Of a stretch of 64,000 nt of DNA, positions 874 through 64,000 are shown piece after piece. The notes under the pieces are model-generated. The model saw only the letters and a program-made list of their open reading frames with translations. It was not told where the DNA came from and searched no databases. Source of the DNA: Lutjanus erythropterus (Eukaryota; Chordata; Actinopteri; Lutjaniformes; Lutjanidae); NCBI GenBank assembly GCA_020091685.1, contig CM034595.1:23855564-23919563 (forward strand), in the 5' to 3' direction. The position numbers were made by a program, and so were the translations under genes. Numbering within the stretch: position 1 is the first letter of the stretch; each line of letters opens with the position of its first letter.

Positions 874-1321
874 GAATCATGTGCGTCCCAAGAATGCTGA
901 ATTTCCATCCAACCAAGTTTTGCCAGAATCCACTGAAAAGGTAAAAATGTTCTCACTTCACACGTCTATAATTTCAGTAATGTTGACATTACACAAGATG
1001 TTTGTCAGGGGAGTAGCTGTCGTTTCCTGCTCTTTTTTAGCAGATGATTCAAAGACCACACTCAAATTCCGGTCCCGCCTGTTTAGAAGATCTCCTAGCC
1101 AAGGAAGAAAAGTCGATTGAGATTGCAGTAAAGCCCACCGCAGATCATTTTGTCAATGACATCATAAGCTCCACTCCTGAGCTGAGGCAGTTTCGTGGCT
1201 TGGTGGAAGCAAGGTAATGATCTGAGACTATATGTTAATTTTTGTTGGAGATTCCAGTGAAAAGTTTGTGTTAACTTTATCACACTGAAATCAAAGCTTC
1301 ACTTTTGTCCTCACATTTCTT

Positions 1322-1355
<34 letters not shown>

Positions 1356-4300
1356 TCATCTTCATCAGCACTCCAGTCGCCAGGCACACCACCACAGAGC
1401 CACCCAGAGATGAGGTGGAGACCAGCCTGGAGGATCAGATGGGGGAGGTGGAAGAGACGGAACACAAAGTAGAAGAGGAGCAGGGAGGAGAGAAGCAGGG
1501 AAAAGAGGAGGAGGAGGAGGAGGTGGAGGAAGATGACAGTATGGAGTGGGAGCTGCGCAACACCGACTCTGTGTTTTCTGAACTGTCAGAGCTGAGTCGG
1601 GACTATGTGGAGAGTGTAGACCAAGGGGCCAGTGTCAGAGGTAAACTCATCAGGAAAACATGTTTAAAGGACAGGTCTGTTATTTTGAGGTTTTTATATG
1701 ATTCTGTAGCTTCTCAGTAGTATTTCTTATGTATTTGTCTTGGAGCTGCAACAGTGAATCGATTAATTATAAAATTGAGGGTTTTTTTTAAGAGAAAAAG
1801 ACAAAATTCTCTGATTCTAACCTTCCGAATGTGAATATATTCTGGTTTCTTTGCTCCTCTGTGACAGTAACTGCATATTCTTGGGTTGTAGACAGAACAA
1901 GACATTTGAGGCTGTCAGTGCGGGCTTTGGGAAACACTGATCAACACATTTAATCATTTTCTGTCATATTATAGGCAAACAACTATAATCAATTAATAGA
2001 GTAAGTAATAGACAGATTGATTGACTATGAAAATAATCGTTACTTGCAGCCCAACTCTGAACAATTATGTACATATTTTAGCTTGAAAATGCTATTTTCC
2101 CAAGCCCCTCTAAAAACGTTTTCCTACATGACCTGATGTAGAATCCTGCATCATCATGTCGCTACATATAAACCCCCTAGGCTGAGGAAGGGGAGGGGAG
2201 GACATCAACGCTGTAACCTACTTCACTGTTTCTTGCAGAGTGGAAGTTCCCAGTTGAAAAACCCAGAAAAGAACAAAGATGGAATCACCCTTTAAAGACC
2301 TGTGTCACAAACCTAGTTAATGTACTTTCCTTTCATCTTAATCAGGTTTAAAGGGACAGTGCGCCCCCAAAATTAAAACAAAACATATTTTTCAAACGTC
2401 TCTTCCCAGAAATAATGACCTGGTTGCTCAAAATCTTCCACAGACCTTGCTGTGAGCCGTTTCATGTAGAAAGTGCTTTCTACAGTAGATTCTACAGAAC
2501 TACTCTCCTTCTGCTAGAAACAAAGTAGTTCCTCCATGAAACTAACTGCCCAGAGATGAGCAAGTTATCGTTTTGTAACCCTCAGTTAGGTAGTTGTTTA
2601 TTCACTGGAGAGCAAGAACCAAAAAATGCCTCAATAACAAAACAAATATCTTAATAACAATGTGTTGTATCAGATGCAGCTTTGAAACACAAAGTAAGTG
2701 AGCACAGACATCGGGAGCTGAGAGAAAGTTGGTTTCTCAAAATAATGTGAAATGGTGAGAAACTGTTTATACCCAGCTAACATGAGGTGCGAGTACATCA
2801 GTGAAAAAAGTAACTTACTGTAGGTTTCAGAAAGCTTTACTTCCTTTTTTTTACAGTTGTGGATGTGAATGAAAAGTTATTAGTAATTCCAGCTAGACTT
2901 ATATTTCCCTAAGTGTTCTCTGTGTGTTCAAAAATGTTTTAATATTTTTTTTCCTGTGTAGGCAGTACAGACCAGTTTGAGGAGATTCTTTCTCAGTATG
3001 AGGAACTGAAAGTCATCCAGTGAGTCCTATATTTAATTTCTCTAACCTTTTATGACTAGTTCTATGTGCTTTTGATGTGCAGGGGATTTTCCAGACACTT
3101 GAGTACAGTACAGTTTCTTTCTTCTGCGCAAACAAATCACTCCGAGGAGGAGGAGAAAATATTCTAATCACCGATTTGTTGGAACTGTTTCCTCTCTTTA
3201 TCAAGCAACTCAGTTTCTTTATAATCTTAAAGTATTCATCTTTTGCTCTATTTCTTTTTTTCAGCGAAATGACTGAAGCTGCCCGTAAGAATTTGATATC
3301 CCGGGTGGTGGAGCTGACTGATGACCGCTCAGCTCTTAAACTGGAAGTATCGACTCTTCAGGAAACAGTCTCACGACTAGAGGGGCGGATGAAGGAGAAG
3401 GAGGAGGAAACTAAGAGGTGTAGAAGATTGTTTTCCAATTTCACTACTGTTTGAAAATTCTTCACCTTTTTGGAAAAATAATTGCATTTACCCCATTAAA
3501 GTTATTACTGTATATTCTGCTGTTATAATAATGTTGTGCTTTATATCCGCTGTTTTTCATAGACTTCGGAAAGAACTGGAAATATTCCAATCTGAGGATC
3601 CTGATGTAAGGAGACAGTATCATTTTCAGACTTTTATCTACCGTATTACAAAGATGTAGTACTACAGTAACATAAAAAAATAATATTCACAGGAAATTCA
3701 TATCACAATCTCACTGTCACTAATCACAATTTGATTTTTAAATTATTTTTGCATATTGTTCAGCCCATGTGAAACCGATGCATAAACATCATTAAATAGC
3801 AAACATCTGTCCATTCAGGCCTCTCTACCCACATCCATGCGCCACTTCTCCCGTTCTGAAATGGCTCGTGTGGTCATGGAGAAGAACCAATACAAGCAGC
3901 GTCTGTTTGAGCTGCAGGAGGCAATGAGACGTAGTCAGACACTGAGGTAATAGTTGTGTTTATATATTTTTAAATATAAGTTTATTTCTGTCCCAACAAA
4001 GAGCTTACAATTTGGCCAGAATATGGATGATCATGTTTCAGGTTTTTGTCTCGTACGTCAGTTAATGTTTTTTCTTTTTTTTGGTAGAGCATCAAAGGAG
4101 GAGAGATTAACAATGGACAAAAGAGCAAGTGTTTGGAGAAAGTAAGTGTTTGTCTTATCTGGAATCTCATCCTCTATTGTCATCTTCCTGTCAATTAAAA
4201 TCGCAATGAAATTAATGTCGTAAAACAAAAAGTTGGCTGGTGCAGCTTTGCTCCTCAAAAAAACAGGCTAAAAGAGGTAGCCTGGTCCTTGTGCCTGTGC

Positions 4301-7300
4301 TACAAAACCAGGGGAGGGAAGAATTTTTCATCTTTTTGTTAGTAAATCACCTTGGTATGAGAACAATTTAAATAAAGAACTGTGTTATGTAATTGCAAAT
4401 TTGGTAATATGCTGTAGTTGTAGTGTAGACATTTTATGGTCTGTATGAAATAATAATTTTTTATTTTTTATTAAAGGTTCAACCGCTTCTTTGGCCTGTC
4501 CAGGGAGCCCTTAATCCCACCACCTGCCTCTGCATTTGTCCTGCCGACTTCTCCATCAGTCACTCGCCCTCCTCTGGGGTCTCCACAGCCACCAGCTGTC
4601 AGTCAAACTCATACTGGGTAAGCGGGGACATGTCGCTCTTGTATATGCTCCACAAAATTGACTAATCATTAAGGACTCAGTTGAGCTGATTTTAACACCA
4701 GAAGCACTCTCTCTAGATCTGCTTCTCCTGCTGTTCTCTCCCCTCGTGTCAGGAGGAGAGAACTCTACAGAGAAATTCGCTCGCACATTTGGGCATCGCT
4801 TGGAAAACGGCAGATACACGGCTGGAGCACACCGCTGGCAAACACACAGGTAGTGGAAACGCACACATGGGCGCAATGTAAGGCTGAATTAAGGCTGGTT
4901 GATGACTACCGAACTGGCGTATGATGATGTCCACAGTGAAACATCGCCAAGGGACGATGACATCATTGTTTGTCGGCTTTTCTGATGTCCCATAGAAGAG
5001 CCTGCTTGCTCACCAGCTGTGGTCACTGCGTCCCTCCACTGCTGCTCTGACATTAACCTACAACTGTCTCACTCACACAGACACAATCAGACATCGCAGC
5101 TGTTGGTTGAGAGTGTGTTGTGGAGCAGCGGCTGTTACTCTGCAGGCCATTACATTAGCAAAATAAAATGACAAATATTGTCCCCAGAAAACAACCAGTT
5201 CCACAACCCTAATGATATTCTTGACTGCCATTATCGTAGGAATCCCAGGAACCTGTCCCAGAGCCTAAAGATGTGCCTGTTCTAATGCAGCTCAGACTGT
5301 TGGATCAAAGAGACTCCACAGCTAAGGTAGATCTTTTCACTGTGAAACATCTTCAACACAAGAACCTAACAGCCTCTGCGTCATACCTCTGCTGCATTTA
5401 ATAAACATGGTATTTTTCTCTTCAGCTGAACTGTGCAGTTGCAGTCGCACCTGAGATCTCAGGAGAGGCCACAGTAAGTCTGTTATTATCCTGATTCAAT
5501 AGCGACTCCTACTCTAATCACCGTTTACAATGCCACCCAACCATAACTAACACTTCCCAGGGACGCATTGTTTCATGCCACTCATCTTTTCAAACCCCAT
5601 ATCCGTCCCTCTCTGCCAGTGTTCTGTGTGGGTAGTTTCTGGGCCTGCCTTCAGCAGTGATATTACAGTGATTGATCCAGCACGTTCCAACACAGTACTG
5701 GATCAGTTCAACCTCCCTCCCACAGCTCCTGCTCTATGCATCTGTGCTGTGCCTCCCATAGGTCAGTGCCAGTACTGCAGCAGCTGCCTACAGACAACTT
5801 GTCTAATGCACTCGTGTTATCTCATCATACCACACTGATCATTTACTGGAAACATTTGGAAAACAACACTGCTTCCTTAGCCCTTCCTTTTGACACAGTC
5901 TTTCCTGTCTTGTTATGTCAGGTGACACTGGAGGGACTGTGTGGATTGGAACTCAGGAAGGAAGGTAGTCTTGCTGAATAAGCAGCTCGCTTCAATAAAT
6001 AACACTCTCTCTGAGTGAGATTCTTGTTGGCAAAGCACTGTGACTGTCTGACTCTCTTTCTCCTCACTGTCTCTCTCACAGTATACTGGTACACTCAGCC
6101 TCTGCTGGCAGGGGGCGCTGTCTGAAGTCCGTTTCTCTCTCAGAGGGTGTTCATTCACTCACGTGAGTTCTATCTGCTCTGTGTTTGAAGCATACTTGTG
6201 TTTAGGTATTAGCATGTAATTGTCTGTCTTAAAATGACATTAAGCTATTTTCATGTCTTCATCCAGAAATCTTTGAGAATAAGCAACTTTTTGTTGACTC
6301 AATCTGACAGGTATTCCCAGGGTCAAGTTATAGCTGGTTTAGCTGATGGGACTTTAGCATTTTTCTCACACAGCTCAGGTAATGGTTTCTCTTATTGTTA
6401 TATCTGACTAGTTAAAGCTGGGGTCAGCCATTGTGGAGAAAGATTGTTGATATTTGAACAGCCAAACAAAAACACACCTCCCCTCTGTGCTCCTTCAGAA
6501 ACTGCCCTGGAGATTCATGGACAGGTACTGCCAGGGCAGCGACACTAACAACCAGCCTTATATGGCATAAATTAACTAGTAAATTAACATTTCCTGACAT
6601 ATAAATCGCAGACATCACAAACATTAGCAAACAGGACTAAACAATACTGACTTACTGGTTCTGTTAAACATAGCAACACTAACCACCATTGGAAGGCCTT
6701 ACTGATGGTACCACAGCTCTTTGCTCTTGTCTGATCATAAAAGATCTTTAAAAAAACAAAAATCTGACCTTTTCCTTCTTGGCTGTTTCTTGGCCATCTC
6801 TCATTGACAGTACAGTTACACATTAGCATGTGCCTGATTTACTGTCCATCTTGCTCCCACTGCCTCTTTTCTCCCCCTTTCCTTCCCTTTGTTCTGCATA
6901 CAAACATGAACGCCACCTATTGCTGATTGGCTGGAATAGTGTGAGGCTACAGATGAGGACAAAATGATTAGCCCCCTATGAAATTTAAAGTTTTTTTCTT
7001 TAGAAAGCATAACTTATTTCTATTTGCACACAATAACAGAAGTATTTCAGAAAAAACAAAAATTACCAGGGTCAGTATGCTCAAAGCTTGTAAAATCAAG
7101 TTAAAACTGAGGGTTATCTTCCAATTTACACACAGTATAAAAACTTAAGTAATGCCAAAAACAAAAAAAAATCTGTTCAGATTTGAGAAGAAGAATTGTT
7201 GATGCTCACAACAGCAGGAGAAGGATATACAAAGTTATCACAGGATTTCCAAGTGTCAAGAAGTGGAGTGAGAAGAATCATCAAGAAATTCAAAGAGAGA

Positions 7301-10300
7301 CACACATTACAGAACAAGGCTGGCAGAGGTAGGAAGTGAAAGATTTTAAAGACTCTGGAAAGAAAACTAGTGAGAGATGTGTCTTAAGACCCCAGAACAA
7401 CTGCCAAGACACTAGTGAATGACTTAGCCAAGTTGGGAATTGTAGTCTGAAAGAAGACAATCACTATAGCTCTGCACAGGAATGGACTGTGAGGTTGCAG
7501 ACCAAGAAAAACTCCACTTCTGCAGAAGAGATACCATCAAGCCAGACTGAAGTACAACCTGGAGAAAGATAATGCATACTGGAAGAGTGTCCTTTGGTCA
7601 GATGAGACGAAACTAGAGCTCTTTGGCCATAGAGACCTTGCTTATGTTTGGAGAAAGAATTGTGAATCTCGTCAAGATAGAAGGAATCATGAAGAAAGAA
7701 GGATATGTGAAGATTTTGAAAGAAACCCTCAAATAATCAGCAGCAAAACTGGGTCTGGGTTGTCGCTTTGTCTTCCAACACCCAAAATACACATCACTCT
7801 TGGTGAGGAACTACCTCCAGAAGACCAAAGTGAACATTGCTGACTGGCCTGCACAAAGCCCTGACTTGAATCCCGGTGAAAATCTGTGGGGTGAACTGAA
7901 GACCAAGGTCCATGACAGAAGACCATCAGATCTGGAGGAGCTTGACAGATTTGCCAAAGAAGAATGGGCTGGGATTCCTCAGGAGACGTGTCTGAGACGT
8001 GTTGAAAGCTATAACAAACGACTGCAGGCTGTTATCCAGCAAAAATGATACAGAACCGACTATTAGCATCAGGGGGGCTAATAATTTTGACCCTGGTAGT
8101 TTTTGTTTTTTGTGAAAATAATTTTGTTTCTGTGTACAAAGTAAAATAATGTAAGCATCCAAAATAAAACTAGGATGTTTTGAAAAGCTGTTCTAAAAAT
8201 TCCTTGCTCTGTTTAACAGCACTTGGGAGATACTTTTAAAAAAATGAAATTTTCATAATAATTTCATCCTCAACTGTAGACAGCTGGCAGACTGTAAGGA
8301 GATAATCACTGAATTTGGAAAAGGTGTATTGGATTAGAATCCCTGACCCCAGCTTTAATTAATCTTCATTTTGCGTGCTTCACAGACCGTAATGTTAAAT
8401 GACATAAATAATGACTTAATGGGTTCTGTGATTAACAGGTGGCTGGAATCTACAGTCACACTATGTGATGCCTCTTGGCTCAAACCCTGTGCAGCCGATT
8501 CGTTGCTGCCTTGCAAAAGCTGGCCGGCTGTGGGTGGGATATTGGAACAAAGTCCACGTGGTTGACCTTGACAGCAAGAAGGTTGAGGTAAGAAACAGAG
8601 GAGGCGCCTATATTGTGTCTCATGTCCACGCCTGTGTTTGAACTCACCATCATTATTCCTTATCTGACCTCACAGCAAACCTTCTCAGTGTCTGAACGCA
8701 GTGAGCAGCAGGTTCGTTTCCTGTGTGCTGGTGGAAGCGGTGTTTGGACATCCTGCCGACTCGACCCAATCCTGAGACTGTTTGACTGGACCACAGGGCG
8801 GCCGCTACAGGAAGTTGATTTTACTGCTTTGGTCACTAAAACATTAGGTGCTAAAACTTTTCTTTCATTACTAATACATTTATTTAAATGTAAAATTATA
8901 CATTCACAGTAGGACATGCACAGTGTACTACAATATTACAGTATGTTTCAGCATAGTGTAATAATTTCCTATAATGTTTAGATAGAAATCTTTTTGTTTT
9001 ATAGTACCTTTTGTCTTGCTGCTCTCAATTTTATGATAAAGGAAATAAGTTTCTTCACATGTTAAACAGTTATATATTTTAGCAGCCCATGTGTTTTTTA
9101 TAGTATGTGCAAGTTCCTCTGTGGGTGTGTGGCAGCAGTTTATAATCAAACTGATAAAATGTGCCCCAGCTATAAAGTTTTAAAAGACCAGTTATTGTTA
9201 GAGCCAAGAGAATAAAATATCAATCAATGGACTACAAAATGCTGGATTTATTATTGACTGCTTTTATGCCACAACGAAATTCAAACTTTTAACTCTGTCC
9301 TACAGCTCAGCTAACACATTTCTCTCTCCCTCTGTAGGCCAAGCTTTCCTGACTCTCTCACCTCTCCAGATCTCATCTCTGGCAGTCATCTCTGGCCGTC
9401 TGTGGGTGGGCACTGGAGGTGGTGCCCTTTTCTCCATCCCATTATCCATAAGTGAGTTTTATTTACTCTGACAATACAAGAACTTGAATTTTATACTGTC
9501 AGAAATGTGTTCTGTCAAGTACTAACTATATCAATGACTGTCTACAGCATCAGAGGCTGTTTCCATCCCGTATTGCTCCATTGCATCAGCTCAGCTGTGT
9601 TACCATGGACACAGACAAGCTGTCAGGTTCATCATTGCTGCACCTGGTAAGAATGTGAACCTAATGTGCTCGCTGTGTTCAATAACCTGTTAAAAGGATA
9701 GTTCAGATTATTTGAAGTGGGGAAGTATAACAGTACTTGTGAATAGTCAGTGTATTACCTACAGCAGATGCCGGTTGACGTGTCCCCACTTTAGAGAAGC
9801 AGAGAGGAGCACCAGCATGGAAGCTAAGTACTGAACTTCTGGAGGCAGGGTCAGCAACAAAAGGTATTTTAGCAACATACAAAAAGTCCACCTTCAAAAA
9901 AATCTATATAATTTTAAGTGTATGCTATATTTTTAATATATTCACCACTTTAGTTTGCTGTCAGGCAGCCTTTTCTTACAGGTAACTGCAATTATGCAAG
10001 CCAAATACTGCTCTCACTAGAGTTGCTGGTCCACCATTTCATTGATCTGGTAGTTTGTTTGTTTCATAGTGTGACTTTGGTGAATCCAAACCAACCTTTT
10101 AAAATGCCCTTTGGTGAAAGCAATATTCGGTTTATATGATGGCATTTTTTCTGTCAGAAAAGGCTGTCTGACAGCAAAGTAAAGAGATGGAAATATTTTA
10201 AATATAGTATACACTTTTTTTGTTGGAATATTTTATGGCTAAAATACCTTTTGTTGCTGACCCTGTTCACAGCAGTACATTGCTCAGTTATCATACTGGT

Positions 10301-10780
10301 ACCCCTCTCTGCTCATCCTAACTGAGCTGGCGTGCTGACTAGGATCTACTGTAGTAATACACTGACTATCTATAAGTACCTCATATAACTCCACATAAAA
10401 TACTCCAAACTATCTTTTTAATTTACATAATTATATTGGGGTCCACAGGTTGTTTGATCACCTCCCCTGGCAGCAGCACAGTCACTACCTCTCAGCTTAT
10501 CCTCAGCGGAGGAGAGGGCTACATCAATTTCAGAATTGGTGAGTTAAAGAAAATCCCTCAGTGATGTCAAATTCATTAAAAATGTCTGATTGGCTCAGTG
10601 CATTTATTTACCATTTAGTCAGTGCTTAGTTTATTAAACCTGTTCTGTACCACTTTTTCAGGAGATGATGCAAATGATGAATCGGTTGAGTTATCCCAAG
10701 CTACACCTCAGCGGTCTGAACGTAGTCACATGATCATCTGGCAGAGTCCCACCCCCTCAGTGCCCAGTCCGTCCCTCTGA
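874..10780 (+). CDS. JIP3/JIP4-like kinase scaffold and motor adaptor, 3' 22 exons (5' partial)
   Basis: Exons: 874-940, 1041-1213, 1369-1640, 2962-3019, 3265-3417, 3563-3605, 3819-3946, 4088-4141, 4477-4617, 4717-4849, 5240-5326, 5426-5473, 5620-5761, 5922-5964, 6082-6162, 6311-6378, 8439-8587, 8676-8847, 9338-9451, 9548-9646, 10449-10538, 10662-10780. All junctions are GT-AG, and the join gives 810 residues in one frame ending TGA. Visible order: acidic linker with a Glu run (about 126-137); leucine-zipper coiled coil (about 172-255); RH2-type segment with [16 protein letters not shown] (about 269-284) and VWRKFNRFF; then a WD40-like beta-propeller (about 453-790) with [34 protein letters not shown] and [12 protein letters not shown]. 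This order is that of JIP3 (MAPK8IP3) and JIP4 (SPAG9), which link JNK modules, kinesin-1 and dynein to vesicles. The N-terminal RH1 part is off the window. The linker differs strongly from both JIP3 and JIP4, so a separate paralogue is likely. JNK binding cannot be read from this part. Confidence 0.93.
1324..1352 (+). repeat. Poly-T tract just upstream of a JIP-like exon
   Basis: About 29 consecutive T end 16 bases before the exon that starts at 1369. The tract lies where the polypyrimidine tract of that acceptor is expected. It may be a lengthened tract or a reversed poly-A tail of a retroelement; no retroelement body is visible beside it. Confidence 0.8.
1744..2053. repeat. MITE-like repeat with GCTGCAACTA-type ends, copy 1
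   Basis: It starts with GAGCTGCAACAGTGAATCGA and ends with ATAATCGTTACTTGCAGC, an imperfect terminal inverted repeat rich in ATCGATTAAT-type words. Internal text such as the GGGAAACACTGATC stretch matches, in reverse, parts of the copies at 32897-33217 and 33603-33912. It lies inside a JIP-like intron. I recognise it as a common fish interspersed repeat; the family name is not assigned. Confidence 0.75.
2091..2294 (+). repeat. Dispersed repeat, copy A (pair with 53903-54019)
   Basis: From GCTATTTTCC to GGAATCACCC this stretch aligns in order with 53903-54019. Shared blocks include CTAAAAAC, a TGACCTGATGTA block, GAAAAACCC and a final ATGG(A/G)(A/G)TCACC. This copy carries about 85 bases in the middle (about 2150-2240) that the other lacks. 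It has no open frame. Family unknown to me. Confidence 0.65.
2300..2940. other. JIP-like intron, no exon seen; possible MITE end at about 2345
   Basis: No conserved exon or clear coding frame is present. Around 2345 the text TTTAAAGGGACAGTGCGCCC resembles the start of fish MITEs of the GGGACAGTTCACCCC type. I could not find a matching inverted end, so it is noted only as a possible relic. Confidence 0.35.
6950..8276 (+). mobile_element. Tc1/mariner-like transposon nested in the TTAA element
   Basis: The left end reads TA-CAGATGAGGAC at 6948 and the right end, reversed, reads TA-CAGTTGAGGAT from 8278. TA dinucleotides at 6948-6949 and 8277-8278 match the Tc1 target duplication. A second inverted pair, ACCAGGGTCA near 7067 and TGACCCTGGT near 8088, and GATTAGCCCCCT near 6967 against AGGGGGGCTAAT near 8071, belong to the same family's subterminal repeats. 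Total length is about 1.33 kb. The transposase inside is broken. Confidence 0.85.
7560..8047 (+). pseudogene. Broken Tc1-like transposase
   Basis: A Tc1 transposase is recognisable in pieces. [11 protein letters not shown] (about 7597-7629) carries the first catalytic Asp of the DDE triad. [18 protein letters not shown] (about 7849-7902) carries the final Glu in the expected motif, although the usual Ile before it is Gly. The block that normally holds the second Asp reads FQHPKYTS (7773-7796), with the Asp-containing residues missing. Upstream parts need frame changes. The protein stops at 8046-8048. A non-functional relic is the simplest reading. Confidence 0.85.
9690..10421. repeat. Long foldback (palindromic) TTAA-ended element in a JIP-like intron
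   Basis: The left end TTAAAAGGATAGTTCAGA at 9690 and the reversed right end TTAAAAAGATAGTTTGGA from 10421 open two arms of roughly 300 bases that pair along their length. Matching blocks include AGTCAGTGTATTA near 9747 and TAATACACTGACT near 10355. Others are GGGTCAGCAACAAAAGGTAT near 9848 and its complement near 10245, and TGCTGTCAGGCAGCCTTTTC near 9957 with its complement near 10155. About 130 bases separate the arms. TTAA at both ends suggests a MITE with a TTAA target. Confidence 0.82.
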
Positions 10781-12583: not shown

Positions 12584-12913
12584 CTATGTCGGGCTGCTGT
12601 GAGCCCTTGGGATCCGTATCCTGCGGCTCAGGGAGCGGGCGAGGCGGTCCACAGCTCCACCCACAGCTCCCCCCAACTCCTTTCTGGAGGTCAAACCCTC
12701 AATGTTTCCGCTGTACCACATGACCCAGCCTGCCAGGGAGAACAGCACCAGCAGGGCTCCTGAGTACACCAGCAGATCCCCAAAGTCTCTACCCTGGATC
12801 TCCAGTGGAGCGAAGACCCCCAGCAGCAAGGAAATCACCCCTAGCAGGTCCATCAGCACAGCGAATACCAGGGCCAGCTTACAGTGGGACAGGCCGTCGT
12901 ATTTGTACGCCAT
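12584..12913 (-). CDS. tmem238: Transmembrane protein 238
   Basis: The single coding exon gives 109 residues. I start at the ATG at 12911-12913 because family members begin just before the first membrane segment, and an acceptor-like CCTTTTTCAG precedes it. The longer open frame therefore runs back into an intron. Two hydrophobic segments are seen, about residues 13-35 and 46-67. Between and after them is the family signature GRDFGDLLVYSGALLV followed by GWVMWYSGNIE, closely matching vertebrate TMEM238. A basic tail with LARSLSRRIRIPR follows. The function of TMEM238 is poorly known; a small two-pass membrane protein is expected. The gene is tail-to-tail with the JIP-like gene and head-to-head with ccdc106. 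Confidence 0.93.
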   Translation of the reverse strand: MAYKYDGLSHCKLALVFAVLMDLLGVISLLLGVFAPLEIQGRDFGDLLVYSGALLVLFSLAGWVMWYSGNIEGLTSRKELGGAVGGAVDRLARSLSRRIRIPRAHSSPT

Positions 12914-12935
12914 GATGGCTGCACTGAAAAAGGAG
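12914..12935 (-). promoter_or_regulatory. Splice acceptor in the tmem238 5' UTR
   Basis: Reading the minus strand, a pyrimidine-rich CCTCCTTTTTCAG ends about nine bases before the start codon. This predicts a non-coding first exon upstream, probably near 13750-13900, where a donor-like CAGGTGAGG occurs on the minus strand. Transcript data are needed to confirm it. Confidence 0.55.
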
Positions 12936-13448
12936 GAGGATGTCATGAAATGTGGACTTTGCAGCTCGTCATCAAATATGTTATGGCTCAATAATAAAAA
13001 TATTATTTATACAGAATTCACAGAATATAGAATATAAACAAACATTTTTTTGTAGTGAAAACCCTTGAATGTGGTTATCAAACACTGACAAAGATGTAGA
13101 TATGGATCTTACAGTTTTAACATTACATTAACATATTTTTCCAAAATAATATCAGTGCACTAAAACAGTAAACTTCAACCGCTGTCTAAACAATATATAT
13201 ATATATTTATATTTTAAATAAAAATATAGAGAAATAGAGATAGATGTATATTTGAGCTTGAATTAAGAAAAGGGATCAAATATACATAAAATACTGCATA
13301 TAAACTTAACAAATAAAAACAGTTGCATTATGTTGTGTTAAAAAAAGTTTCCAAATAAGCACATATTGGACAACATACATGCCAAAACCGATATAGGCTG
13401 ATATAACTGTGATAGGCCAATTATCATTTATGATAATATTGGTCAGGT
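12936..13448. other. Probable tmem238 5'-UTR intron, nothing else seen
   Basis: AT-rich sequence with a TA-rich microsatellite near 13194-13225. The text CCAATTATCATTTATGATAATATTGG (about 13418-13443) is a small near-perfect palindrome that may belong to a degraded repeat. No coding sequence is supported. Confidence 0.4.
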
Positions 13449-13528
<80 letters not shown>

Positions 13529-15450: not shown

Positions 15451-17995
<2,545 letters not shown>

Positions 17996-22196: not shown

Positions 22197-30190
<7,994 letters not shown>

Positions 30191-43232: not shown

Positions 43233-44106
43233 ACTCATGCCAATTCAAAAAGACAGTCATGGCTGCAGATTCCAAGCGTTTCCCAGCACATGTAATGCAG
43301 GATGGGAGGTATTTGTAGCAACCCATTATCCCCTCAGATCAAACGGGATCTGTGTCTAAGCCACAGATAGTATACCTGCTCTGTTGTTGACTCCTCTGGG
43401 AAAATAGAGGATGTGTGGTCCCAGTCTGGCGCTGTGGTGTTATCTCTCACCTTGACCCCGCACCAAACGACTCCACCACCAGCTCATCCAGCCCGATTTG
43501 TTTCTTCATCTGAAGCAAAATCTGCCTTTCAGGGAAACGCCATATGGCTTATCTATTGTTGGCTGAGAGCATGTCATATGGCTTTTAGGGAGGGATCACT
43601 GTAGATGCTGATAAAGCTGTTGGAAATTAAATATTACGCTGGTGATGAAAGGATTTTTTTGCTCTTGTGTGAAGCATATGCTGGCTGCGCTTTCATCTCT
43701 CTGTTTCATCTCTCTGTTTCACAGGACTGGACGAACAGAAAACACTGGCTCTCCTGGTCCTCGCCTCCGTCTCCTCCCATTTTATCCTTACTTCATCCGC
43801 CCCCCTGCTTCATTTTAGCTTTATTCATATCGCTTTCTGTCTAATTTCATTGTTCGGCCCACTTATTTTTACTTGATCCTTTGTTCACTTTGGCAGCTTT
43901 TGTTCAATTTACCCATCCATCACAGGAGAGCTGATAGCTTTGTCTCCTCTTTTTTAATATACTGCTTTAAACACGTCCAAACCTGCACCCTCTTCACCCT
44001 AAACTTCTTTCCAGCTTCCATCTTTTCATCTATTATTTCCTCATCTAATCTTTAACCAAAGTGCACTGTTCCTTCCCCTAATCTTGCTTGGGCCTGGCCA
44101 GTTGAG

Positions 44107-47100
44107 ATGTGGTCCAACTTCTTCGTTCAGCAGGATGACGAGGGTCGTATCGGGGTGGCGGGGGCTGGACAAGCTGGAGGTTTGGGTGGAATGAAAGGTG
44201 GAAGGGGACAGAGGAGGATCCCCAAGATGAGTGACAGTCAGGAGGGAAAGATCAAGCTGGCTTTCTTTGTGGCTATCATTGGCGTGACCCTGACGGTACT
44301 GGGCATGGGGACAGAGTTTTGGGTGGAGCTGGCCCAACCGAAGAATTTCAGCGGCAATCAGACCTGCCAGATGGCCCATTATGGCCTGTGGAAGGGCTGC
44401 ATCCGCACCCTATGGGTGGCTGACATAGACCCGGAGAGAACAAGCTGTGGCCCTGCTGAACTACCTGGAGGTGAGACCTGTGGCCGACCTGTGCGTGTCC
44501 GTGTGTCTGTGTGAGTTTGAGTTCTCCTGTCTGTCTGCTCTCTGTGCTGTCTAGGAGGTGAGCAGGTGAGGTTTCTGGAGGCCATGTGTCTGTTTTGTTT
44601 CTTCGACTGTCTGCTCGTGTCTGCGTCTCTGTAAACTGAATTGCCTGGCCATGCAAGTCTACCTGGAGGCTGCCTCCACGCCGCAGCATGTGCCTCAACA
44701 TGAAAACGAATTACAGGGTTCATACAGGTGTTGGGAATCCTTGAAAACACTTGAATTTTAATGGGGTCTTTTCAAGGTTTGAAACGTCCTTGGATTTTGG
44801 ATTAAGTTCTTGAAAGTTTGAAATTGTAATTGTATCACTTTCAAAATAAAGTACAATCTCACTGAAAATTTCACTGAATAGATAAAGAAATAAAATAAGT
44901 CAGAGAGAGCCTGTTCACTTCTCCCTTTCACTCAAAACTTCACTTGAGCCTCACTTGCTAAGTCTGTGCATATGGCTGCGCTAAGCATGATCACGTCACA
45001 AAGTTACTGTAATTCCACTACTTTTCATTAGACATGTAACTAATTACTTTACATAAATTAATAATGCAATTACAATTTATTAAATTTAAATGGGCTCATT
45101 ACTTGCTACTTTGTCTTACCCGAAAATAGTGGAAAACTGCAGAGGAAGGCAGACATAGCAGACTGTTCAGCGATGTATAATCTAATGTGCTCCAAATTTA
45201 CGGTGACACTTCAAGAATTGTGAGTTTGTTTTTCACCATAGTCTAATTTAAACTGTTCATCATGAAATTATTTATTACTGTGGTAACCTTTAGTTAATAT
45301 ACCCAGCTTCCTGTAGGTCTTCTTCTGGAATATTACTGTCTAACTCATCGGCTCACAGGTAGATGCTAGTCATCACTGCCCCCTTGTGGTTGGGAGTATT
45401 AATAACTCCTATTAGTGATAATGGGTACAATGACAGATAAAAGTTGACAGTTGTCACTAAAAGAATATAGCTACACTAAAATTATATATCTACAATAAAA
45501 TAACATAGCTGCAATAAAATAATGTATTTGTCAATGTATTGTGTAATGTATTTTTCTCTCACCAAGGGCACGCTCACAGGGGTATTATAGGACTTTTCTG
45601 TCTCCACTAGCAGACAGTCTCTTGTCGTTTGAGTTAACTACACAAGCTAGCCTGATGAACACCAAGTTTCTATGCTGAATCTTGTTGGCTCATTTATGGC
45701 AGTTTGTCATAAGCTTCAAGGGGACTGTGTTTTTTTTTTTACCAACATACTTTCAATGTTCACCCACCACCAGCCACAGGTAGCCAGCTGGAAGTGTACG
45801 AGTTCTGATTCTGCCCCAAACTTTTTGATCCATATAAGCAATGGATCCGAATTTGAGCAGTTAGCTCCATGGCTAACTGAGCTAACTAGCTAACCACAGC
45901 TACACATAACAGCAGACAGCAGTAAGCTTAGTTTAGCAACAAGTAAACAAGCCAATCCCTGTCTGTCCATCAGGTAACTCTGCAAGTTAAGCCACCATGC
46001 TACTGTACAGTCATGAGACTGGTCTTATGACATCTTTATGACAAGTCAAAATGGCACCACTGTAGTTGAAGTCCAGGAAATTATTTATGACACTGTTAAA
46101 AAGGTATTTGGCAGTGTAATAAAACTTAGTGACATCTTTACGACAAGATCCATTTTACATGAGGTCAAGGAAAATATTCATGACACACTCATAATGGTTT
46201 TATTACAGCCAGTGTCAAAACCAACCACATATGACAGTTTGATCTAATGTTAAAACGTAAAGCTAAACAGTTCCTTTAAGTCTGTTAATGTAACATTGTC
46301 GTGGTAAAGACATCTCAACTTTTCATTAAAGATGACGTAATTGACTCCTCAATGTTCATAACAGGTGTCATAACATGCTAATGACAGTGTAATGACAGTG
46401 TAATGAGTCTTATGCACACCCCTTTAAATAAAGTGTTACCAATATTTCTGAGAGGTTGCAAGTTGTTGACATCGTTCAGGAAAAAATTGTGTACACTTAA
46501 ATGCCATGATTTTTCTTTGCCATTACCACTGATGTGAAAACAGAGGGAGCAGGCATCACTAATATGATGTCTGCCCTCTGGGAATATGCTTACATCTGTA
46601 GGTCTTTCATGTGAGCCCATAAGGGACTGAGGAAAGCTTTGCTGACAATTTATTTTAATAAAAATAATGTTCATCCCACTGACAATCTTCAGATTTATCA
46701 GCAACATGTTCACAATTTTTCATACACATCTCAAGTCATTTCCCTGTGTGTGTATTATGTGCATCCACTGTAACCTTGCAAAGGGATAGAGAAAAGGATA
46801 GTTGTGTATGTGAAGCTGCCTGCATACATATGTATCTAGGTCATCCTACAGATAATGTGCAAATTGAATCATTAAAGAAATACGATGCTTGGAAACAGAG
46901 CACGAGCAGGACCACAGAAAAGCTCTTCTATTGTAACAACACAAAGCAGCATGCAGGCACGTGTGGAGTTATACAGTAAAATCTTTGTGATTCACAGCAT
47001 TGTCAGTGTAATGAAGCATTAATTTCAGTTTTTTTTTCCTTCACTGGGTACGTAATCATCTCCTGTTGTACACACAGTACAGACAGGTGATGAGGGGCAG

Positions 47101-50100
47101 ACCACAGGTTTATTGTGCTGACGAACGTCCATGTTTAGGGTTGTGACAGCGCTTCTCTGAAAGCACTTTATTCAACTTGACCACAGTTAGGTTCTCGAGA
47201 GCGCGTCGATTATCTGCACAATGACCTATTTCTGTCTGAAAAGTGAATCTAGAGACGGAGAGAGGCAGGTATTGGAAGAAGTCAGATAGAGATAGGCGGG
47301 CTCCTGGAATCACTGCCTGTCTCAGGGAATCTGCTGAGACACAAAACCAAAAGAATCTCCTCTCCCAGCAGGAATACACAAGGATATGTACATTAAGGGT
47401 GACATAATATACTGGTATTGACAGAAACCGTGATATTTTAAAAATGAAATATTGATATCATGCTAAAAATACGCATATGATAATGTTGTGTGAGACAGAG
47501 GACTTAAATGTTTTTCAAGCCATGGACCCCTAAGCTGATAGAGATATGGAGCAGGGCCCCCTACAACATATATTGCATTCAGGCCTATTTTACTTCTGGT
47601 GAAAAAAAAAACAAAAATCAAACAATAATTTGGCATCCCCCCTTGTGGTAACTCTTACCTCTTTTCCATACATGTGTTGGCTTTGCTTGACTTGGTCTGA
47701 CAGCTCAGCACAGCAGTGATTTTCATCTCCACAGGGAGGTGAAATGCAACAACACCAGGGCTACCCGCTTGAAGGTGTGTCTTTTAACATAAGATAAGCC
47801 ATCCTGCTGAAAGGCAACACGAGACAGTAAGAGAGACTTTTAAAAACATCTTTCTCTCTGCCCTCCAGAAACACGGGTTCAGTCTTAAAACACTTGCTTG
47901 TTTGAAGGGGAGAAACGGGGTCTTCACAGGTTGGCCGTGGTGATTGAGATGTCACTACAGCCTGCTTGGAGGCGGGTCAGTCACAACTTTGGAACTGTTG
48001 TGGAGAACGTCCATCATGGGCACTACTCTGCACAGCTCGGTGCGTAAAAGTGGTGAGGGAAATGCAAATCAGCGCGGCACTGTTGAAGACCCATGATGTA
48101 ATGTATCCTCTTGAACATATGCTCTTAAATCAATCTTTTTGGCCATGTTAATCGTGTAGTGAAAATTTGATATCGTAACAGCACTAATATACATAAATAC
48201 TACTGACACATCACCTTGAATGATGTGTTACAATATTGTTTTCCATCTAGCCGTCAAGGACTAATTCGTCTTACCTGCCAAACTGTCCTGCATCTCTGGC
48301 TGCTTCTAAGCAGCAGATATATCTCTGTGCTTCCTCCGACATGGTCTGTTGGTGTGTGTGAGAGCAGCCAGTCTGCTTCTGACAATCTTTCTCACACGTC
48401 CTAACACTGTTGGCCCACGCCGCCTGTCGCAGATGGCCGTGGGCTTGTCATGTTTGGACGAAAACAACTGTTTTTGCCATCTCTTTGCTTCTCCGTTTCA
48501 CATCCCTGTTTACATGCCTCTGGCTGCCGTCCCGAGCAGAGCGCGGCCCGCTGATGCCGTGCCTGTCATCTCAAGACCAGCCATCCATCTTGGCTGCCTG
48601 CTGGAGAGGAACATGACAGCTTAATAATTATAGTCTCAGCAGGGGTAGCGAGAGCACAAACCAGTTGACTGTGATAGCATAATGTGTTAAAAAATCAGTA
48701 GGCTGATAAATGGCATGTCGGCTTCAATAAGAAATGTTTGCAAATGTGCTCAGGCACAAACATATTTGTGTGTGAAGGAAATGTGTGAGTGTGAGCATGT
48801 GGTCATCTTGGACCACAAAATATTCAGTGGGTGAAAGTCATCACTATGCGCCTGTGAAGCCAAGTGGAATCTGACTACTTCACAGTTTTTGTCTAAATAT
48901 AGAGAGGGGGAAACGAGGATGAGGGACAGACAGGGACTGAGGGACTGAGTGTACGTCTAATGCAGTATTAACCAACCAGCCCCTCTGTGCTTCCTCCCCC
49001 TCTGACATCTCCTGCTCCCCTCACCTCCTTCTCCATCTGTGGCTCCCGTCACTCCTCCTTTCCCCCCTCTGCTATCTCATCCTCTGAGCCTCTATGAATA
49101 TTTCCTGCATCCTCCTCTCATCATTCACTCATCCTCTTCCCCTCACTCCTTCTTCTTCTTCTGCAGCCACGCCTCTCCGTTTCCATCCTCCATCTGCCCC
49201 TTTCTCCCTGTCTACCTCTCTCCTTTCTCCCCTCAGTGTTTTACTGTCTCTCGCCCTCTCTGGCGGTACCATATGTGCGGTGCTGGGCAGTGTGTGTGTG
49301 TGGACTATGTGGAGCAATGTGTGTAGTGGTGTGTGTCTCTGGGTTTTCCAGCTAATGCTCGACACTTGGATATAAATAGGAATAATGCCTGGAAGGACAG
49401 GGAGCATGGATGCATAGGACGCACATAGCAGAAGTCCACCAGCCATCCATAAGAATGTGTGTGTGTGCATGCATGTGTGTTTTTGTATTACTTCATTGCA
49501 ATGATTAAAAGTTCACTCCAGAGATTTCCATACAATTCACTCTCCTTCTCCTCGTCTTCATCCTCTGCTCACAAACTCTCCGGATTTCACTGCACATCAG
49601 CTTCTAAATGAAACTGTAAACGCTGACTTCAGTACAATGGCATACTTCATGTGAAGTTATTGTTCTTTTGCGTGTGCTGGTCAGTTCAGGACCATGACCA
49701 CTTCACACCGGATCTGATTTGGGCCACATTTTGAAAAGTTAGTTTGAACAGTCAAAAAAAAAAATCTGATCTGAGCAATAAATCAGAAGTGAGCACTACG
49801 GCTTGCAGTGTGAACATAGCATAAATGATGCAGACTCAAATAAGAAAGGCAAAATAATAATAATGATAATAATAATCATTTTAAAAAAGTAAATAAATAA
49901 GTAAGTAAAGGAGAGTGCATAGGGTAAGAAAGGGGGGTATTCTGATCGGGGATAAGCGCAAATCCTGGGCTAAATTAAATCTTACTCCATTTTTGTGTGT
50001 CATCTCTAAAGGTAAAGACTCATTTGTCCATGTTCAAAATCTGTCTTTAATCATAATTAATCAAGATTTGATTTTGTCCGTCTCATCTCTTTGTATGATT

Positions 50101-53100
50101 TTCTTCCCACAGAATCCAACTGCACCTACTTCAAATTCTTCACCTCCGGGGAGAATGCAGTCATATTCAAGAAGACGACTAACAAGAGTGAGACATTACA
50201 CTTTCTTTCCCCTGTCGTTTTTGTTACACATACATACAGATACACACTAACAGTCACAGTGCAGCTACTATCAATAAAGATGTTCACTGGGGTGCTCAGT
50301 GACCATTCTGCTGCTGCTGCTGGTGGTAGTTTTTGCATGTTTCAGCCCATTAACTTCTGCTGCCACCCAGTTTCCAAAGCGAATCATAAGCTCTCAGACT
50401 GATTAATGTGTTTACCTTACTGTCCAGGCAGCAGCCGCAAGTTCAGCTGGCTGAGACTTGGTACTTACATCACAGTGAGCCTAAAGTCAACTTTATCTTT
50501 TGGTGAAAAGTTCTGAAAACTTCCGTGATGCATTCAAGGACATTTAATATATAAGAGCTGTGAGAACAAATTGCAATCAGACGGTGTGTTATGTACGGAT
50601 ATTAAACCAGGAAGATGTACACTAAGCATGGATAATGGGATGCAGTATTCAGCCAAGGCTGCTAATGGTTTAGCTGTATAGCAACGTCAGTCAGTTGGTG
50701 AATCCACCACTTTGGTCCAATACAATAACAAAAAAGTAATAGTTACTTACCCTCCCAAAAACAGAGCCCATACCTAAAGCTTGTTGTGCTTTAATTAATA
50801 AAATAATAATAATAATAATAATAATATCTGTCTCTCTGTGAAGTGTCAAAATACGCAACATTGGCACAGGATGTGAAATGTTGATCAGCTTTTTGGGTTG
50901 CACCTGTTCAGGTGTTCAATGCCAATAAAATCTGTTTTAACCAGAGCCAGTCTGGGAAGTGGCACAATTCACACCATGTTTGTATTTTCCCATTTCAGTA
51001 ATCAACAACTATATGCCCAGTAGAATAAAACTGTGTTCTCTGTGAGTTGGTGCAGTGTCTCATTCTACTAAACAACCAGTTTCCACACAGTGTTTCACAA
51101 TTTTTCTGCCATCTTTATTATAGATTTCGCACTACATAAAGTGACAGATTTCAACTTTATTCATCTGTTTTCAAAAATTCTCACCTATACTTAATATTGT
51201 ATTCCCTTTTTTATTTTAAATTTCCTTCTGCTCTCCTACACAGATCTGAATCTAGCAGCAGCCATTTTGGCACTTTTGAGTCTAACCATGATGATGATGG
51301 GCTCCATCTGTATCGGCATGTCCCTCAGTAAAGGAGTGTCCTTCTTTCTCAAGCCAGCTGCCTTTAGTTTCATCCTGTCAGGTGGGACCTCATGATACTA
51401 TGTTACCTGTTTACATCTGAGTATGGTTATTCATCATACACGCAGTGACCATTGTCATGTTCAGGGTGGGAAGCTCAAATACTTTTGCCAGTTTTAAACG
51501 ATAATTATAATTTCTGTGTTTCAAGGTGTCTAAACAAACCGTCATCATTTCACCACTTCTGGACTGATCAGCAACTGAGAAGACAATGGATAGTAACAAT
51601 CTAGAAAGCCATGGGACAATATTTCAAGACAAAACAACATATGTGAGAGCCCATAACCTAATGTTAGCATTCAACCACTTCTTAGATAACACAGCCATTC
51701 GATAGTGTAACACAATAGAGCAGGAAGGCGCAAATTAAATTCTGAAATCTCAAACCACATCTTGGACACATTTATTTGAAACTGGAAGTAAAATGGACAG
51801 GATGTAATCACACTATTAAACCATAATGTTAGTTAGGAGGTGGCTGAATGCTAAACATTAGCTGTTGTCTGTCAGATATGTTGTTTCACCTTGAAGTATG
51901 ACCCAATCACCCTCCAGGTTTTCACTGTCCATTGCTGATCAACAAAGAAATGATGATGATTTGGCAAACATATTACCAATCCAATTATTTGTCACCACCT
52001 GTCAGCGTCTGATACTGAAGCGGTCAATAACGGTCACGTCGTTTAAAACGTATGTGTTTATTTTTGTGCTTGACGGGAACATAAACGAGCCTTAACATGC
52101 GATGAACGCTGTCAAATGTTCGCAGTTTGTTTAGGTTTAGGCACAAAGCTGCGTGTTGAAGTTTAGGCAGAGTGAGAATAAAAAAAATAATTGTCCCTGT
52201 CATTGTCAAGTAACTGTTACTATAAACAACAATAACTACCTTAGTATTGAAGTTCACTTGATATTGAAAGTGAATACTGATATGAAACTGCAACAAAGTA
52301 AAAAAAAAAATCATGATTAGCCTGTGCCATTAATATGACAATTAAAATTTACTTAGAAAATTGCTCTCTCCATTCCTCCTCTTTTTGTTTTACAGCGGTT
52401 GGCATCTATCATAATGGTGCATTATTACAATGATTTTTTTTAATGAGGCACAAAAACTACTTAGTTAGGTAGGTTTAGGATAAGGCTATGTTTGGGAATA
52501 CAATAACTATGTTATGTATATCACTGAAGCGAACAGGTACTGTCCTTGTCTATATGAGTTGCAGAGGGGCGGTGACAAATCATCGATTTCTGATGAGACC
52601 GGGCTGATTTATTAGTTTCCCTACATGTAAGACACCTGCACTGCACTGTAATCTGTACTGCACTTTAAATTTTATCAAATTTTATTGAAATTTATTGCAT
52701 CTGCTTGTCATGTGTAGGACTACATATGGAAATTAGTGTCTTGCTAAATCTGGTGCAACCATGTTTTCATTTCTTGTAAATGATCAATGTCATTGCACAC
52801 TGAAACTAAACAAAAGTCAACATTTATATGGCTCGCAACCTGGAATACAGCAGATTGACATTTGAACGTGCCACTCAGAGGAAAATGGTTGCTGCGTGAA
52901 CATGGTGAATGAGCCTAAATAAATTATTTGGTCTTTATAATCAGACTTTTATTCTTCCATAGCTTCGAGGTGATGTTTTCATTGATGTGATTTTATTTTC
53001 ACCTCTGTGCAGGTGTACTGGTGCTTCTCTCTGTGCTGATGTTCCACCAGTCCGTGCTAGCTTTGCTGTCCAGTGACCACTCTATACCTTTACACCACGA

Positions 53101-63120: not shown

Positions 63121-64000
63121 CTAAGACAGCACAGAAACACAGTATTTACAAAAGAGCTAAATAAAGTCAGACAGACCAACTTGCAGAACTAATAAACACA
63201 TTTGTTTGACTTGATGATTTGTGACACTCTCAATAAAGACAAATGGAATGACGAGACTTGCACGTAAAACCTTCTACTAAACTCACACAACAAGACACTC
63301 CCAAACAAAGCATAAAAACTGTTAGTGCAAGTAATATTCTCCAGAACATCTCACACAAGCAGACAAGTACATACTGTATCAACACTCACATACATCCATT
63401 CTTGAGGACTGGGACAAATCATGTCCTACAAAAAAACAAAAAAACAAAAAAAAAAACCTGGAAAAATATTAATACCAACACTCTAACTCAAGTTTTGGTG
63501 AAAATTTATTCTGTATTTTTATATATATACATATATATATATATATGAAATAGATGTAATTTGTCAAATGTTTTGGTTTGCTTTTTTTTCTAAACTTGCT
63601 CTGTGCCAGAAAACACACTTGTCACAGACAAGAATTCACAAATTTCAACAATTTAAAAATTTAAATCTGAAACTAATAACATCCATTGATAACAAGGGTA
63701 TAAAAATGTAATACTATAATCATGCTTGGTTTAAAATAAATTTTCATGAAAATCCTGGCCCTTTAAAGTTGTGTGAGAGATTTCTCTAAACTTTACCAGA
63801 TTTTGACAATCAGACGGAGCTTTTTTTTAAAACTTCTTGGTTTAAAAAAAAGGCAGGAATACTGCTCAAGCACTGATAAGCTTTTTATTTTTCAACAAAT
63901 TGATTAAATAATATTGCTATCAGATGTGTCTCAACCATAACATGCCAACTCTGTAGCCCTTCTAAATCAAATCTAAATAAGAATTATTCTTTAAAAACTT
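63121..64000 (-). other. cacng8 intron, upstream exons off the right edge
   Basis: The 880 bases to the window end are AT-rich intron. A TA microsatellite is at about 63521-63546. No TM1 or TM2 exon of cacng8 is present. Confidence 0.7.

What the first reader, a model, noticed from the sequence alone, without database searches (positions are those of the whole stretch)
874..10780. A third JIP3/JIP4 ohnologue that mammals may have lost
The coiled coil, RH2 segment and beta-propeller are those of JIP3/JIP4. The linker between them is a short acidic stretch unlike either. The gene sits beside tmem238, ccdc106, u2af2, cacng6 and cacng8, all on human 19q13.4 as I recall. Human MAPK8IP3 and SPAG9 lie on 16p and 17q, which also carry CACNG paralogues. 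So the family may once have had a member on the 19q paralogon, kept here and lost in mammals. The sequence supports the family; the ohnologue history is inference.
Basis: partly seen in the sequence, partly recalled or inferred. Interest (0 to 1): 0.75.

Follow-up and report, generated by a model that had tools for sequence, protein, structure and literature searches.

The report
Third JIP3/JIP4-type gene in fish
A fish chromosome carries a third, fast-changing relative of the two human motor-adaptor genes JIP3 and JIP4, probably left over from the ancient vertebrate genome doublings, which has kept its motor-binding parts but lost several known cargo and signalling motifs.

Summary
The window carries an intact JIP3/JIP4-type gene, but only 22 of its 27 modelled exons; it starts 1.24 kb upstream (994 aa, RH1-LZI-LZII-RH2-propeller). 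Searches of the same genome found three other JIP loci: one JIP3 and two JIP4. The window protein is 35-36% identical to all of them; human JIP3 and JIP4 share 61%. It fits in neither clade: nesting in JIP4 is rejected on the main alignment, and a fish-specific JIP3 duplicate reproduces the data in 1 of 100 simulations. Nineteen of 26 introns match JIP4 exactly, so it is not a retrocopy. Its block (epsin, GSG1-like, TMEM100-like, CACNG) has relatives on the two chromosomes that carry JIP3 and JIP4, and a sister block on C17 lacks the gene. This fits a third ancient paralogue, most likely a 2R ohnologue of the 19q13.4 paralogon. Loss in mammals rests on recall and was not tested. Kept: RH1 core, RH2 core, propeller, a Spindly-like motif. 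Changed or absent: JNK docking site, the phospho-Rab arginine, the TMEM55B motif, the HBS1 glutamine. Most likely it is a motor adaptor rewired away from JNK, phospho-Rab and TMEM55B.

The parts
874..940 (+). JIPX exon 6 of 27 (exons 1-5, with RH1 and LZI, lie upstream of the window at -1237..-233); position of the JIP3/4 JNK docking site; weakest exon of the model
   Evidence: gene model, not recovered by spliced alignment; JBD alignment
1041..1213 (+). exon 7, conserved STPEL motif
1369..1640 (+). exon 8, acidic stretch (44 aa, 23 D/E) and Spindly-like motif VFSEL
2962..3417 (+). exons 9-10 (2962-3019, 3265-3417), leucine zipper II
   Evidence: JIP_LZII; model
3563..4141 (+). exons 11-13 (3563-3605, 3819-3946, 4088-4141), RH2 domain; arginine equivalent to RILPL2 R132 replaced by histidine
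   Evidence: 67% identity to human JIP3 over 33 aa
4477..4617 (+). exon 14, start of the proline/serine-rich linker with a degenerate copy (KFNRF) of the JIP3 FFxxL autoinhibitory helix
4717..5473 (+). exons 15-17 (4717-4849, 5240-5326, 5426-5473), region before the propeller
5620..6378 (+). exons 18-21 (5620-5761, 5922-5964, 6082-6162, 6311-6378), first part of the propeller; the long JIP3/4 loop with the TMEM55B-binding motif is missing between exons 18 and 19
8439..10780 (+). exons 22-27 (8439-8587, 8676-8847, 9338-9451, 9548-9646, 10449-10538, 10662-10780), rest of the propeller and stop codon
   Evidence: WD40_2
12584..13006 (-). tmem238 exon (syntenic anchor)
   Evidence: Pfam TMEM238 3.5e-26
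15451..17995 (+). ccdc106 (syntenic anchor)
   Evidence: Pfam CCDC106 3.2e-53 on 17585-17995 and 8.5e-23 on 15801-16076; start by eye
22197..29782 (+). u2af2 (syntenic anchor; extent approximate)
   Evidence: PDB U2AF 65 kDa 1.4e-32 on 29450-29782; RRM_1; first exon by eye
44056..53233 (+).
   Evidence: Pfam Claudin_2 on 44056-44514 and 52991-53233
62321..63145 (-). cacng8-type last exon
   Evidence: PDB TARP gamma-8 matched over residues 7-273 of 274; family places

Best explanation
The gene (called JIPX here) is an ancient third paralogue of MAPK8IP3/JIP3 and SPAG9/JIP4. It most likely arose with them in the vertebrate 2R genome duplications, sits on the 19q13.4-type paralogon, is kept in this fish in one copy, and evolves much faster than its sisters. 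Its product most likely works as a dimeric adaptor joining dynein-dynactin, and perhaps kinesin-1, to membranes. The RH1 domain would dimerise and hold the dynein light intermediate chain helix; LZII, a Spindly-like motif and RH2 would dock on the dynactin pointed end or bind small GTPases; and the propeller would contact cargo. The JNK docking site, the phospho-Rab-reading arginine and the TMEM55B-binding motif have gone, so it would not be recruited by JNK, LRRK2-phosphorylated Rab10 or TMEM55B. Shown here: the gene structure, intact frame, family membership, best position outside both clades, block paralogy and the motif states. Inferred: the 2R date, mammalian loss, and every biochemical activity.
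For: Intact 27-exon, 994-aa frame; a spliced alignment driven by recalled human JIP4 recovers both borders of 17 of 27 exons and one border of 8 more. Four JIP loci found by two family searches: C5 (this gene), C19 twice, C20. The C19:26.4 Mb gene is JIP3 (75.5% to human JIP3); the C19:28.1 Mb and C20 genes are JIP4 (72.4% and 72.8% to human JIP4); JIPX is 34.6-36.3% to all five comparators. 19 of 26 introns share column and phase with the C20 JIP4 gene. Six-taxon test, 880 gapless columns: JIPX on the branch between the clades is best (AU 0.96), and all four tested placements inside JIP4 are rejected (AU 0.003-0.008). Parametric bootstrap on those columns, two of the six nested placements simulated: a fish JIP3 duplicate reaches the observed difference in 1 of 100 simulations and a duplicate of the fish JIP4 pair in 0 of 100; simulations with JIPX between the clades reach them in 55 and 71 of 100. 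Paralogy: TMEM100 family places found are C19 x2, C20 x2 and one 4.6 kb upstream of JIPX; GSG1 family C19 x3, C20 x1, C3 x1, C17 and this block, plus a weak C6 match; CACNG on C19, C3, C17 and this block; single-exon ENTH domains on C19 x2 and a split one in this block. The C17 block has ENTH, GSG1-like, EF-hand, TMEM238 and CCDC106 genes but no JIPX or TMEM100-like gene in the 30 kb read. Motifs: with PMC6831827, PMC7615804, PMC7139218 and PMC12393467 (passages).
Against: The JIPX branch is very long (1.8-2.3 substitutions per site against 0.05-0.16 for the others), so long-branch error is a real risk. AU does not formally reject JIPX as sister to fish JIP3 (0.065) or to human JIP3 (0.11) on 880 columns; on 605 columns, filtered partly on agreement with JIPX, the values are 0.0225 and 0.217, and one of the four JIP4 placements is allowed (0.083). 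With a recalled fly sequence as outgroup no placement is rejected at 0.05. The NDK gene beside JIP3 on C19 has no counterpart found on C5. CACNG, GSG1 and ENTH relatives also lie on other chromosomes, C3 among them each time. The WD40_2 genome search listed no exon of JIPX itself, so it is blind to such divergent copies; the locus count rests on RH1 and LZII. No second species was available, so purifying selection and loss in mammals were not measured. Human and fly comparators were recalled; human JIP3 1-561 and 72 residues of JIP4 were checked against PDB, the rest were not.
Confidence: 0.72

Rival explanations
1. A teleost-specific duplicate of mapk8ip3 (from 3R or a later local duplication moved to C5) that diverged so fast that it now looks ancient.
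For: JIPX shares 19 JIP3-type against 10 JIP4-type states at 91 sites that separate the clades (38 other, 24 gaps). AU 0.065 on 880 columns is not a rejection. The tree with the recalled outgroup puts JIPX nearest JIP3.
Against: 1 of 100 simulations under this history matches the data. At 174 sites where human and fish JIP3 differ, JIPX matches human 38 times and fish 22 times, the reverse of what a fish duplicate should show. The block has its own C17 sister block and several other paralogue pairs, so the region is not a lone insertion.
Confidence: 0.12
2. A pre-vertebrate (older than 2R) third JIP gene that kept an independent history, rather than a 2R ohnologue.
For: It is less like JIP3 and JIP4 (35-36%) than the recalled fly Syd is (44-46%), and the branch position allows it.
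Against: Block paralogy with the JIP3/JIP4 chromosomes is what 2R predicts. PMC6831827 (passage) reports a single JIP3/4-like homologue in invertebrates. A fast rate explains the distance.
Confidence: 0.1
3. A recent small transfer of a TMEM100-JIP segment from C19 or C20 to C5, which would also explain why both genes are missing on C17.
For: Both the TMEM100-like gene and JIPX are on C5 and not in the 30 kb of the C17 sister block that was read, and the relatives found for both are on C19 and C20.
Against: A recent copy would nest inside JIP4 or JIP3 and be similar; nesting in JIP4 is rejected on 880 columns, identity is 35-36%, and the TMEM100-like copy is below its family cut-off. Loss of two neighbours from one 3R copy is ordinary.
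Confidence: 0.06

Closest known systems
MAPK8IP3 / JIP3 (human; fish orthologue at C19:26.42-26.45 Mb)
   Same: RH1-LZI-LZII-RH2-propeller order, 18 of 26 intron positions exact, STPEL motif, RH1 V60, propeller core (45% identical over 204 aa)
   Different: 342 residues shorter than human JIP3; no JNK docking site, no TMEM55B motif, HBS1 Q93 to R, X-cap R522 to H, FFxxL to KFxxF
SPAG9 / JIP4 (human; fish orthologues at C19:28.1 Mb and C20:6.2 Mb)
   Same: Same architecture; lacks the JIP3-only insert before LZII, as JIP4 does; 19 of 26 intron positions exact
   Different: As for JIP3; placements inside the JIP4 clade are rejected on the 880-column set
RILP / RILPL1 / RILPL2 family
   Same: RH1 and RH2 domains
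   Different: No propeller (recalled); the four other RH1 places in this genome (C9 x2, C18, C4) are presumably these genes (recalled, not checked)

Membership tests
JIP3/JIP4 family | N-terminal RH1 domain | tested here: met
   PF09744 43 bits, cut-off 24; 15 of 18 published dimer-interface positions hydrophobic, 8 of 18 identical to JIP3
JIP3/JIP4 family | Leucine zipper II | tested here: met
   PF16471 30.5 bits, over the cut-off of 30, on the exon, but 28.8, under it, on the spliced protein
JIP3/JIP4 family | RH2 domain | tested here: met
   67% identity to human JIP3 over 33 aa; aligned to JIP3 in PDB 8pr2
JIP3/JIP4 family | C-terminal WD40-type propeller | tested here: met
   PF19056 1.7e-31
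JIP3/JIP4 family | JNK docking site between LZI and STPEL | tested here: not met
   ERPxS(L/M) in 5 of 5 comparators, absent from JIPX; no RPx(S/T)(L/M/I/V) in the three plus-strand frames from the end of exon 4 to the end of exon 8 either, so the weak exon 6 does not decide it. That this motif is the JNK site is recalled. This lowers 'JNK scaffold', not family membership
JIP3/JIP4 family | Phospho-Rab X-cap arginine (RILPL2 R132 equivalent, JIP3 R522) | tested here: not met
   R in 5 of 5 comparators, H in JIPX; K149 equivalent kept in 6 of 6 (PMC7139218 passages). The residue mapping to JIP3 is mine
JIP3/JIP4 family | TMEM55B-binding motif ExG/AxEA | tested here: not met
   EEATEA in 5 of 5 comparators, no match anywhere in JIPX (PMC12393467 passages)
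JIP3/JIP4 family | Spindly motif L-hydrophobic-x-E-hydrophobic | tested here: inconclusive
   LYHEL/LFEEL/LYHEI in 5 of 5 comparators, VFSEL in JIPX
JIP3/JIP4 family | Binds dynein, dynactin and kinesin-1 | not testable with these tools
   needs biochemistry
JIP4 orthologue group | Nests with its fish and human members | tested here: not met
   AU 0.003-0.008 on 880 columns, 0.026-0.083 on 605; 0 of 100 simulations for a duplicate of the fish pair; not rejected once the recalled fly outgroup is added
JIP3 orthologue group | Nests with its fish and human members | tested here: inconclusive
   AU 0.065 (fish) and 0.11 (human) on 880 columns, 0.0225 and 0.217 on 605; 1 of 100 simulations for the fish-duplicate case, the human-sister case not simulated
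2R ohnologue of the 16p/17q/19q paralogon | Several linked gene families with members in each block | tested here: met
   TMEM100, GSG1, CACNG, ENTH and JIP; NDK not linked on C5. Human positions of these genes are recalled, except that PMC3427181 (passage) pairs MAPK8IP3 with SPAG9 and CACNA1G with CACNA1H in paralogons on human 16 and 17
2R ohnologue of the 16p/17q/19q paralogon | Orthologue in non-teleost vertebrates | not tested
   no such genome in reach

The most novel reading that the evidence does not exclude
Vertebrates originally had three JIP3/4-type adaptors. The third was freed from JNK, LRRK2-phospho-Rab and TMEM55B control, survives in fish as a phospho-Rab-insensitive motor adaptor, and was lost with its TMEM100-like neighbour on the line to mammals.
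Probability: 0.4. Interest if true: 0.65.

Novelty: new variant of a known kind. Interest (0 to 1): 0.52.

Why it matters
JIP3 and JIP4 are central to axonal lysosome and autophagosome transport and are usually treated as the whole vertebrate family. A third member offers a natural experiment: which parts of the adaptor are needed for motor binding once JNK, phospho-Rab10 and TMEM55B control are removed. It also means that fish knock-outs of jip3/spag9 may be buffered by, or confused with, a third gene. The loss from mammals, if confirmed, is a datable event of ohnologue loss in a disease-relevant family.

Tried and rejected
Rejected: pseudogene (27 exons, no internal stop, AG/GT junctions). 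Retrocopy (19 of 26 introns shared exactly). Fish-specific JIP4 duplicate. A fifth JIP locus at C4:36.38 Mb from the WD40_2 search reads as another propeller protein (an ARHGEF17 type, recalled) and not as JIP. A relic of JIPX in 30 kb of the C17 sister block: best tblastn E 3.0, while the same query at the same setting gives 11 and 9 matches at two paralogues.

Led nowhere: IMG/VR and GTDB contig scans for other JIPX sequences (2 and 21 pattern hits, none a relative). Paper searches for a third JIP gene in print (listings read: 20 of 20, 5 of 5 and 10 of 22 papers) showed none described; that is only this open-access library and these terms. Paper searches for the CACNG/PRKC paralogon and for TMEM100 ohnologues (8 of 383 listed) gave nothing useful. 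Passages of PMC2777172 and PMC3585007 were read and not used. Outgroup rooting with recalled fly Syd is too weak to use. The first gene model had one exon one base short and was corrected.
Full report
What is there. The window holds 22 exons of a JIP3/JIP4-type gene at 874-10780 on the plus strand. All junctions are AG/GT, and one frame of 810 codons runs to a stop. Pfam gives WD40_2 at 1.7e-31 and JIP_LZII just under cut-off; the best solved relative is human JIP3 at 5e-13. The window is cut inside the gene. In the same contig (C5; window = C5:23855564-23919563) five further exons at window positions -1237 to -233 carry the start codon, an RH1 domain over its cut-off and LZI. The full model is 27 exons and 994 aa; I call it JIPX. 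Exon 6 (874-940) is recovered by neither and rests on reading by eye.

The family in this genome. Two family searches find four JIP loci: C5 (JIPX), C19 at 26.43 Mb, C19 at 28.10 Mb and C20 at 6.25 Mb (LZII, 6 matches at 4 places; RH1, 8 matches, 4 of them at these places). A third search, with WD40_2, listed 28 matches that include the C19 and C20 genes but no exon of JIPX itself, so it could not reveal further divergent copies. Spliced models give C19:26.4 Mb as JIP3 (75.5% to human JIP3) and the other two as JIP4 (72.4% and 72.8% to human JIP4). JIPX is 34.6-36.3% to all five comparators, while human JIP3 and JIP4 are 60.8% to each other. The recalled human sequences were checked where possible: JIP3 1-561 against PDB 8pr2 agrees at 559 of 561 positions, and a JIP4 stretch against 2w83 at 71 of 72; in each, one difference is at the end of the aligned stretch. 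Their propellers could not be checked.

Phylogeny. On 880 gapless columns from six proteins, the best place for JIPX is the branch between the JIP3 and JIP4 clades (AU 0.96). All four tested placements inside JIP4 are rejected (0.003-0.008). Sister to fish JIP3 (0.065) and sister to human JIP3 (0.11) are disfavoured but not rejected. On 605 columns filtered partly for agreement with JIPX, a filter that may bias, the values are 0.92 for the best, 0.026-0.083 for the four JIP4 placements, 0.0225 for fish JIP3 and 0.217 for human JIP3. Because the JIPX branch is very long, I ran a parametric bootstrap for two of the six nested placements. Sequences simulated with JIPX as a fish JIP3 duplicate reach the observed likelihood difference in 1 of 100 cases, and as a duplicate of the fish JIP4 pair in 0 of 100; simulated with JIPX between the clades, 55 and 71 of 100 do. 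At 174 sites where human and fish JIP3 differ, JIPX matches human 38 times and fish 22 times; at 91 sites that separate JIP3 from JIP4 it is JIP3-like 19 times and JIP4-like 10 times. Rooting is unsolved: with a recalled, unchecked fly Syd sequence the best tree joins JIPX to JIP3, but no placement is rejected at 0.05. So JIPX probably left the JIP3/JIP4 line before fish and tetrapods split; whether exactly at 2R is inferred.

Structure of the gene. 19 of 26 JIPX introns fall at the same alignment column and phase as in the C20 JIP4 gene (18 of 26 for the C19 JIP3 gene). Of the other seven, one is a single column off, five lie in linkers or gapped regions, and one inside RH1 has no counterpart. 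This is DNA duplication, not retroposition.

Neighbourhood. The order on C5 is epsin (ENTH exons at 23795055 and 23796378; UIM and DPW motifs by eye, names recalled), forkhead, isochorismatase-type (under its cut-off), GSG1-like, EF-hand, TMEM100-like (31.1 bits, cut-off 34), JIPX, then tmem238, ccdc106, u2af2 and CACNG-type exons. That human CCDC106, U2AF2, EPN1, TMEM238 and CACNG6/7/8 lie together on 19q13.42 is recalled. The other TMEM100 family places found are C19 twice and C20 twice. GSG1 places outside the block are C19 three times, C20 once, C3 once, C17 and a weak match on C6. The 11 CACNG matches lie on C5 (1), C17 (2), C19 (4) and C3 (4). ENTH domains in a single exon lie on C19 twice, and other ENTH exons on C3, C17, C8 and C11. 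C19 and C20 make up about 7% of the assembly (contig lengths) and carry all other JIP genes found. A published paralogon analysis pairs MAPK8IP3 with SPAG9, and CACNA1G with CACNA1H, on human 16 and 17 (PMC3427181, passage). Against the pattern, the NDK gene beside JIP3 on C19 has no C5 counterpart, and C3 carries several relatives but no JIP gene was found there. A sister block on C17 (33.56-33.61 Mb) keeps ENTH and GSG1-like genes, the EF-hand gene (80% identical), TMEM238 and CCDC106, but neither JIPX nor the TMEM100-like gene was found in the 30 kb read. The simplest reading is a 3R pair in which C17 lost both.

Function. Published contact residues were read off the alignment. [quoted passage not shown] The Spindly motif LYHEL (PMC7615804, passages) is VFSEL. 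Weakened or absent: HBS1 Q93 is R, though acidic residues follow as in JIP3; the FFxxL autoinhibitory helix reads KFxxF; the arginine of RH2 that corresponds to the phospho-threonine-reading R132 of RILPL2 (PMC7139218, passages) is H, while the K149 equivalent is kept; the TMEM55B motif (PMC12393467, passages) is gone with its loop; and the JNK docking motif (recalled) is gone, with no copy in the three plus-strand frames from the end of exon 4 to the end of exon 8. All five comparators keep Q93, FFxxL, the RH2 arginine, the TMEM55B motif and the docking motif. The likeliest mechanism is a shortened motor adaptor that keeps the motor-facing parts and the propeller but is uncoupled from JNK, LRRK2-phosphorylated Rab and TMEM55B. 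The sequence states are shown; the activities are inferred.

Verdict. The acidic stretch was misplaced and the gene is longer than the window. Mammalian loss remains unverified. That the organism is a teleost is inferred from gene content and the doubled blocks.

Noticed in passing
L012:3657-4154 (+), window positions -6343 to -5846, upstream of the window: A TMEM100-like single-exon ORF (31.1 bits, cut-off 34) ends 4.6 kb before JIPX starts; the four other TMEM100 family places found in this genome are on C19 and C20. It may be a second fast-evolving ohnologue lost in mammals.
   Followed up: partly
window 6950-8290: A Tc1/mariner-like transposon remnant (recalled by its transposase motifs; ORFs at 7493-7843 and 7737-8048; borders by eye) fills most of the JIPX intron between 6378 and 8439.
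   Followed up: no
L032-L034 (C17:33557001-33587000): Sister block of the window region with an EF-hand gene (80% identity), tmem238 and ccdc106 but no JIPX or TMEM100-like gene found.
   Followed up: yes
G000:C19:26.42 Mb and C19:28.10 Mb: The JIP3 and one JIP4 orthologue lie 1.7 Mb apart on one chromosome, whereas the human genes are on 16p and 17q.
   Followed up: no
window 13450-13530: A (TCTA)n simple repeat between tmem238 and ccdc106.
   Followed up: no
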